DNA from: Eutreptiella sp. 'Long Island Sound 2002'
Taxonomy: Eukaryota; Euglenozoa; Euglenophyceae; Eutreptiales; Eutreptiaceae
Length of the DNA stretch: 64,000 bases
Direction: 5' to 3'
NCBI GenBank assembly: GCA_964036045.1
Contig: OZ038378.1
Location: 164,359,311-164,423,310, forward strand
Below the pieces are notes generated by a model. It had not been told where the DNA came from. It did not search any database and saw nothing but the letters and a program-made list of their open reading frames with translations. Position numbers and translations under genes: made by a program. Of the stretch, positions 4,022-61,407 are shown piece by piece (the stretch's first letter is position 1; every line of letters begins with the position of its first letter).

Positions 4022-4092
4022 TTGGAAAGGGAGTGCCACGCGCGGCTCATCACGTACTTCCACACGGCGCTGGAGCACGCGGCCCGATGCAG
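4022..4092 (+). CDS. Exon 1 of the model: N-terminal helical segment
   Basis: The acceptor is a pyrimidine-rich run ending TTGCAG at 4021; the donor is AG-GTGCGC at 4093. It codes for 23 residues (LERECHARLITYFHTALEHA and three more) and ends in phase 2. Composition is amphipathic-helical with no recognised domain. The split codon AG+A gives Arg with the exon at 6569. It lies between two transposon-like repeats (1563-1903 and 4222-4547). Confidence 0.5.

Positions 4093-61407: not shown

What the first reader, a model, noticed from the sequence alone, without database searches (positions are those of the whole stretch)
4022..61407. A 57-kb gene joining an ADP-ribosyltransferase to an NB-ARC/STAND switch, TPR-like helices and a DC1-like zinc finger
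Seen: 28 short exons on one strand whose phases all match, and whose peptides fall in the exact order of an ART fold followed by an NB-ARC module and TPR-like helices. Known: NLR-type STAND proteins couple a sensing repeat array to an N-terminal effector. Inference: this is an immune- or stress-type receptor whose effector is an ART. I do not recall this full domain order as a described family. The caveat is that a few boundaries were picked to keep phase, so the phase match is not fully independent evidence.
Basis: partly seen in the sequence, partly recalled or inferred. Interest (0 to 1): 0.9.

Follow-up and report, generated by a model that had tools for sequence, protein, structure and literature searches.

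The report
ART-like domain on NLR-type switch gene
A large, many-exon gene in a eukaryote appears to join an ADP-ribosyltransferase-like domain to an NB-ARC/TPR molecular switch of the kind used in immune receptors, but residues that normally drive both activities have changed, so it may be a non-catalytic relative of such receptors.

Summary
The gene is real. A curated + strand chain of 24 GT-AG exons (4022-57545) reads 1254 codons without a stop. An automatic chain scores 272 against 80 on the other strand and 26-77 in 12 Markov nulls. Spliced, exons 5-8 match a profile of 27 ART domains from the same genome (53 bits, best decoy 8). Exons 9-17 match an NB-ARC/winged-helix/TPR profile of 80 prokaryotic loci (104 bits). 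So the order ART, NB-ARC, TPR-like is right. The DC1-like finger is weak. The 28 exons, the start and the stop at 61407 are not confirmed. That ART and NB-ARC share one mRNA rests on splice phase. New: the ART has Ala where 46 of 46 sampled paralogs have Arg, and Walker A has Arg where all relatives compared have Lys. The genome holds at least 151 ART matches; of nine open frames scanned, seven join ART to LRR, ankyrin, Kelch, RCC1, Mind-bomb SH3 or Ras domains. Best reading: a pseudo-enzyme NLR-like protein from a combinatorial ART family. Immune function is untested.

The parts
4022..4092 (+). exon 1 of the chain (helical N-terminal region); true start may lie upstream
   Evidence: acceptor ttgcag, donor CAG|gtgcgc
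6569..6647 (+). exon 2
12016..12246 (+). exon 3, before the ART
13212..13392 (+). exon 4, leads into the ART (FGYDFPELPVHDL...)
   Evidence: weak acceptor (0.1)
15444..15575 (+). exon 5, ART part 1 (ALTPEEAFTLYMYTSEL)
   Evidence: ART profile of 27 own-genome domains; not in the automatic chain; donor -1.1
21283..21348 (+). exon 6, ART part 2 (DEDAVEFWRPLMVTL)
23206..23384 (+). exon 7, ART part 3 (ALDKLQDYRGLCYAAS...WHGFCSAF); Ala at the position of the paralogs' Arg
26361..26494 (+). exon 8, ART part 4 (GYGEVLFKPSALFWV); second Glu of ExE kept, first replaced
   Evidence: can also read on to a stop at 26708
28403..28503 (+). exon 9, start of NB-ARC and first half of Walker A (VVHGTPG)
   Evidence: negative codon score on its own
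29330..29461 (+). exon 10, second half of Walker A (GSGRTS) and VVWWIDA
   Evidence: 27 bits alone against an NB-ARC profile; not in the automatic chain
30153..30267 (+). exon 11, Walker B (WLLIFDNAN)
31010..31209 (+). exon 12, NB-ARC RNBS-B region (GAVLILSK)
33681..33790 (+). exon 13, GxP region (GTPHVLSMVAAG)
35251..35489 (+). exon 14, winged-helix region
   Evidence: WHD+TPR stretch 20.2 bits, best of 500 shuffles 4.9; not in the automatic chain; donor -2.4
37959..38259 (+). exon 15, end of winged helix and first TPR-like unit
45738..45932 (+). exon 16, TPR-like
47462..47613 (+). exon 17, TPR-like
   Evidence: donor -2.4
48484..48650 (+). exon 18, helical
48927..49023 (+). exon 19, helical
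50297..50486 (+). exon 20, helical
52731..52872 (+). exon 21, first half of C1-like finger (HPHRPEQPCTVCG)
   Evidence: Pfam C1_2 E 0.028
54238..54361 (+). exon 22, second half of C1-like finger (WACEKGCAYHVCGPC)
56388..56646 (+). exon 23, plausible; strand not certain
   Evidence: no Pfam hit over cut-off on either strand
57379..57545 (+). exon 24, plausible

Best explanation
One eukaryotic gene encodes a STAND protein of the NLR plan: N-terminal region, ART-like domain, NB-ARC switch, winged helix, TPR-like helices and perhaps a C-terminal zinc finger. By its ART it belongs to a large ART family of this genome; by its switch, to the AP-ATPase/TPR proteins. Shown: the domains, their order along the + strand, compatible splice phases and the altered residues. 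Inferred: the TPR-like part binds a ligand or partner, the NB-ARC part changes shape and gathers several copies, and the ART-like domain then acts. Because the residues that should hold NAD and the ATP phosphate (roles recalled) are both replaced, the ART part most likely works without ordinary catalysis, as a binding or decoy module or as a regulator of intact ART paralogs.
For: Chain 272 against nulls 26-77 and minus strand 80; no stop in 1254 codons, GC3 0.80. Spliced ART 53.0 bits, E 4.4e-15; best of 2000 shuffles and 1232 window ORFs 8.0 bits; exons alone 8.0-10.4 bits, true exon order highest of 24. Spliced NB-ARC finds bacterial NB-ARC/TPR proteins at E 2e-13 in a database of 5.8 billion; Pfam nSTAND3 6e-5 and AAA_16 3e-4, below curated cut-offs; 103.9 bits to an 80-locus profile, collinear from P-loop to TPR. 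Residues: Arg in 46 of 46 paralogs, window Ala; second Glu 46 of 46, window Glu; first Glu 44 of 46, window Tyr. Walker A Lys in 6 of 6 homologues found with the window's own sequence and in 80 of 80 loci, window Arg.
Against: No cDNA. The ART to NB-ARC link rests on phase (1 in 3 by chance for that junction) and on the lack of a good start exon between; exon 8 can run to a stop at 26708 with a coding score above 97% of intronic open windows. Lost residues also fit a decaying gene. Pfam's ART, NB-ARC and TPR models are not listed even at E 10. Sampled paralogs come from the best PF01129 matches, which favours intact ones; the 80 loci were partly chosen with a pattern that contains GKT, which inflates the Lys count. 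One alignment would keep an Arg in the ART. The NB-ARC profiles were built from hits of the window's own sequence and their relatives. The search for paralogs of the whole gene did not complete.
Confidence: 0.5

Rival explanations
1. An active ART-NLR: the switch still cycles and the ART still uses NAD through other residues, so ligand binding triggers ADP-ribosylation or NAD loss and kills or arrests the cell, much as TIR-NLRs are thought to do (recalled).
For: Second Glu of ExE and the Ser are kept; Walker B is kept; frame is intact; one alignment keeps an Arg.
Against: Arg (46 of 46 paralogs) and first Glu (44 of 46) are replaced here; Walker A Lys replaced.
Confidence: 0.15
2. Two neighbouring genes: an ART gene that ends at 26708 and an NB-ARC/TPR gene that starts between 26.7 and 28.4 kb, both on the + strand.
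For: Open frame from exon 8 to a stop at 26708 with coding score -2.8, above 97% of 2000 intronic open windows.
Against: Good donor GCG|gtgcgt at 26494 in phase with the acceptor at 28403; of the start codons between them that open more than 20 codons none has a positive coding score over its open stretch, best -2.6; shorter first exons were not tested.
Confidence: 0.2
3. A decaying gene or old copy: the domains are remnants and the lost residues mark relaxed selection.
For: Both active centres changed; three donors score below 0.
Against: 24 exons without a stop over 1254 codons and strong third-position G+C.
Confidence: 0.15

Closest known systems
Prokaryotic AP-ATPase (NB-ARC) proteins with C-terminal TPRs, e.g. 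FxSxx-COOH system TPR proteins
   Same: Collinear NB-ARC, winged helix and TPR; architecture described in Kaur 2020, PMC7159879 (passages read)
   Different: Arg for Lys in Walker A; no match to this genome's ART profile in 5724 ORFs of 80 such loci (best 8.0 bits; a distant bacterial ART could be missed)
[quoted passage not shown] seen only as cited in PMC11378527 and PMC10197012)
   Same: Eukaryotic NB-ARC plus TPR
   Different: No ART in the passages seen; sequences not compared here
Eukaryotic ARTs (Pfam PF01129) and the ART family of this genome
   Same: Collinear with 27 own-genome ART domains; Ser and second Glu kept
   Different: Arg, first Glu and the N..R helix residues replaced
Plant, animal and fungal NLRs (general plan in PMC10197012, passages)
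   Same: N-terminal domain, NB switch, C-terminal repeats
   Different: N-terminal ART-like domain; I recall TIR, CC, HET or death-fold domains as usual there

Membership tests
NB-ARC / AP-ATPase STAND | collinear sequence similarity from P-loop to GxP | tested here: met
   E 2e-13 to bacterial relatives; 87.6-bit domain
NB-ARC / AP-ATPase STAND | Walker A with Lys | tested here: not met
   GTPGSGRTS here; Lys in 6 of 6 homologues and 80 of 80 loci, some chosen by a GKT pattern
NB-ARC / AP-ATPase STAND | Walker B | tested here: met
   WLLIFDNAN aligned with WLLVFDNAA
NB-ARC / AP-ATPase STAND | Pfam PF00931 over cut-off | tested here: not met
   not listed for the spliced protein
NB-ARC-TPR protein | winged helix and TPR after the NTPase | tested here: met
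   WHD+TPR stretch 20.2 bits, best of 500 shuffles 4.9; against: no Pfam TPR hit and a 7-unit TPR profile did not recover it
ART (R-S-E type) | ART domain by sequence profile | tested here: met
   53.0 bits, E 4.4e-15 against own-genome ART profile; Pfam ART itself not listed
ART (R-S-E type) | Arg of R-S-E | tested here: not met
   Ala; 46 of 46 paralogs Arg; a gapped alignment with four paralogs would keep an Arg
ART (R-S-E type) | Ser and catalytic (second) Glu | tested here: met
   both kept, 46 of 46 in paralogs
ART (R-S-E type) | first Glu/Gln of ExE/QxE | tested here: not met
   Tyr; 44 of 46 paralogs Glu
NLR | N-terminal domain, switch and repeats in one polypeptide | tested here: inconclusive
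   phase-compatible splicing only
NLR | role in immunity or cell death | not testable with these tools
   no expression or functional data
DC1/C1-like zinc finger | Pfam C1_2 similarity and Cys/His ligands | tested here: inconclusive
   E 0.028, below cut-off; C-x2-C, C-x3-C and C-x2-C seen in the spliced sequence

The most novel reading that the evidence does not exclude
This genome runs a combinatorial receptor system in which one effector fold, ART, has been joined to many sensor and switch modules (LRR, ankyrin, Kelch, RCC1, Mind-bomb SH3, Ras/Roc arrays, NB-ARC-TPR), an ART counterpart of the TIR- or HET-based repertoires of other lineages; the window gene is its NLR-type branch and, with both active centres changed, serves as a non-catalytic sensor or decoy for intact ART partners.
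Probability: 0.25. Interest if true: 0.85.

Novelty: new variant of a known kind. Interest (0 to 1): 0.6.

Why it matters
I found no described NLR-type protein with an ART-like N-terminal domain in five searches of the open-access library (mostly listings, passages of a few papers). If the joint protein is real, it adds another NAD-linked fold to the AP-ATPase plan (TIR with AP-ATPase is in print) and shows that such a protein can persist with both nucleotide sites altered. The ART expansion of this genome gives a ready set of fusions in which ART as a general effector could be tested.

Tried and rejected
Unspliced Pfam scans of + strand frames at 3600-8040, 10700-16200, 20050-24480, 25650-39900, 43970-53900 and 54000-63900 gave no family over cut-off, only three weak matches in or beside the triplet-repeat stretch near 27.5-28.3 kb. 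The minus strand was scanned only at 44000-50900 and 56000-58000 (none). The first, partly wrong spliced model found no homologue and no Pfam hit for ART or NB-ARC; putting the P-loop exons right gave E 2e-13. A homologue search with the ART region found none at E <= 10 among 266 candidates. PDB sequence searches gave nothing better than E 0.7. Rfam (gathering) and tRNA scans: none. A Walker A motif within one exon: the only + strand match to G-x4-GK[ST] is at 47102, outside the chain; the gene's own is split by an intron. A TPR profile from 7 units of one bacterial relative did not recover the window's TPR region. Exons 46609-46699 and 51114-51252 and an end at 61407 were dropped (phase or splice signal). 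No NB-ARC profile match at E 0.1 in 2293 ORFs of the fetched ART loci. PF00931 in the own genome: 0 matches from 18 candidates, exon by exon, so nothing can be said on NB-ARC paralogs. I did not identify the organism. Paper searches gave context only.

Full report
What the window is. It lies in a eukaryote-sized assembly of 2.28 Gb, at C1:164359311-164423310. It is rich in G+C and tandem arrays, has 200 N, no tRNA and no Rfam match at gathering score.

The gene. A codon score made from general amino-acid use and G+C-rich third positions, with splice signals, gives 22 non-overlapping + strand exons above 13 bits against 8 on the minus strand, and 15 against 2 above 16. The codon score alone, without splice signals, does not stand out: 89 segments above 8 against 152 in the reversed sequence, 16 against 13 above 15 (both strands). 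Of 21 neighbouring pairs among the 22 exons, 13 match in phase (p 0.007); this used no domain knowledge. A dynamic-programming chain scores 272 on +, 80 on -, 65 and 77 on the reversed and complemented sequence and 26-77 in 12 Markov nulls. The donor model was tuned on exons of a first + strand run, which favours the + strand somewhat. I then curated the chain with the expected motifs in view: 24 exons, 1254 codons, no stop, GC3 0.80. Sixteen of the 24 are in the automatic chain exactly, 5 share a boundary, 3 are absent. Three donors score below 0 (15575, 35489, 47613).

The ART. Pfam did not list it and a database search found nothing. The own genome settled it: PF01129 has 151 matches there, with 150 of 361 candidates scored. 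I cut ART domains from 28 fetched loci, dropped one near-duplicate and built a profile from 27. The spliced window ART scores 53.0 bits (E 4.4e-15); the best of 2000 shuffles and 1232 window ORFs is 8.0, and the ORFs include the ART exons themselves. The four exons alone score 8.0-10.4 bits, together 54.1; the true order is the best of 24, the next order close at 51.9.

The switch. With the P-loop joined across the intron 28504-29329 the spliced stretch finds six bacterial-type NB-ARC/TPR proteins at E 2e-13, 5e-11, 7e-9, 2e-4, 1e-3 and 0.4. Pfam gives nSTAND3 6e-5 and AAA_16 3e-4, both below curated cut-offs. A profile of five of these gives 78 bits, against 9.4 for the best of 2000 shuffles and 27 for the best single exon. 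These profiles descend from hits of the window's own sequence, so one search is the independent test. Pfam shows no TPR and a small TPR profile failed, so the repeats are divergent.

Altered residues (roles recalled, from no call). In 46 distinct ART domains from 48 fetched loci at 46 places the Arg is present in 46, the Ser in 46, the second Glu in 46 and the first Glu in 44; the window has Ala, Ser, Glu and Tyr. The loci were taken from the strongest matches and long open frames of the 151, so intact domains are over-represented. The Arg position rests on the alignments; an alignment with only four paralogs instead lined up a nearby YRG with a gap and would keep an Arg, so this is likely but not certain. 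In Walker A the window has Arg; Lys stands in 6 of 6 homologues found with the window's sequence and in 80 of 80 loci, part of which were chosen with a pattern containing GKT.

One gene or two. Exon 8 ends at a good donor in phase with exon 9. But exon 8 can read on to a stop at 26708, a stretch that scores better than 97% of intronic open windows. I give 0.2 to two genes.

The ends. Chains over the flanks pick + strand exons upstream (for example at -1623) and, mostly coiled-coil-like by eye, downstream to 77.6 kb; no control was run for the flanks. I cannot say which belong to this gene.

The family around it. Pfam on nine own-genome open frames with ART, picked for strong matches or length, shows ART with RCC1 (L033), Mind-bomb SH3 repeats (L050), LRR arrays (L048, L051), ankyrin (L003), Kelch (L006), and six Ras/Roc domains plus an AAA domain (L039); two (L034, L044) show ART alone, their frames being cut by the stretch fetched. 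So ART is a promiscuous partner in this genome and the window gene is its NB-ARC form.

Known work. Passages read: PMC7159879 (AP-ATPases with TPRs in FxSxx systems), PMC8195603 (ART among shared effector domains; AP-ATPase with TPR), PMC10197012 (NLR plan, brown-algal NB-ARC-TPR), PMC11378527, PMC12258605, PMC12881547. For ART with NB-ARC and TPR, (with 'alga') found 0 papers and one, a peanut review seen only as a listing. Searches (15 listed of 116; 5 of 5; 10 of 47) listed none whose title or abstract start names this order;'s five I read passages in three. The library is open-access only.

Mechanism and verdict. The NLR model (sensor repeats, nucleotide switch, assembly, N-terminal action) is established for other members and inferred here. 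With both nucleotide sites altered I prefer a non-catalytic receptor, decoy or regulator. It is a new variant of a known kind, and its immune role is untested.

Noticed in passing
own genome G000 (L001-L028, L033-L052): 151 matches to Pfam ART PF01129 (a lower bound), many in very long open frames (up to 7554 aa); of nine scanned, seven carry LRR, ankyrin, Kelch, RCC1, Mind-bomb SH3 or Ras/Roc domains in the same frame.
   Followed up: partly
L039:3-9320: One open frame of 3106 aa with an AAA domain, an ART and six Ras/Roc domains in tandem.
   Followed up: no
L030:4333-5060: Stretch that looks by eye like a retroelement RNase H, about 5 kb upstream of the window.
   Followed up: no
L031:647 to L032:3636: Coiled-coil-like + strand exon candidates downstream; same gene or the next one.
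   Followed up: no
27715-28239 and 49726-50020: Long CAA triplet tracts inside introns of the chain.
   Followed up: no
16164-20049, 39801-43969, 8243-10617, 24482-25656: Large tandem arrays inside introns, the first of a 23-base unit.
   Followed up: no
56388-56646: Very strong coding signal on +, but the opposite strand also reads open; no Pfam family over cut-off on either.
   Followed up: partly
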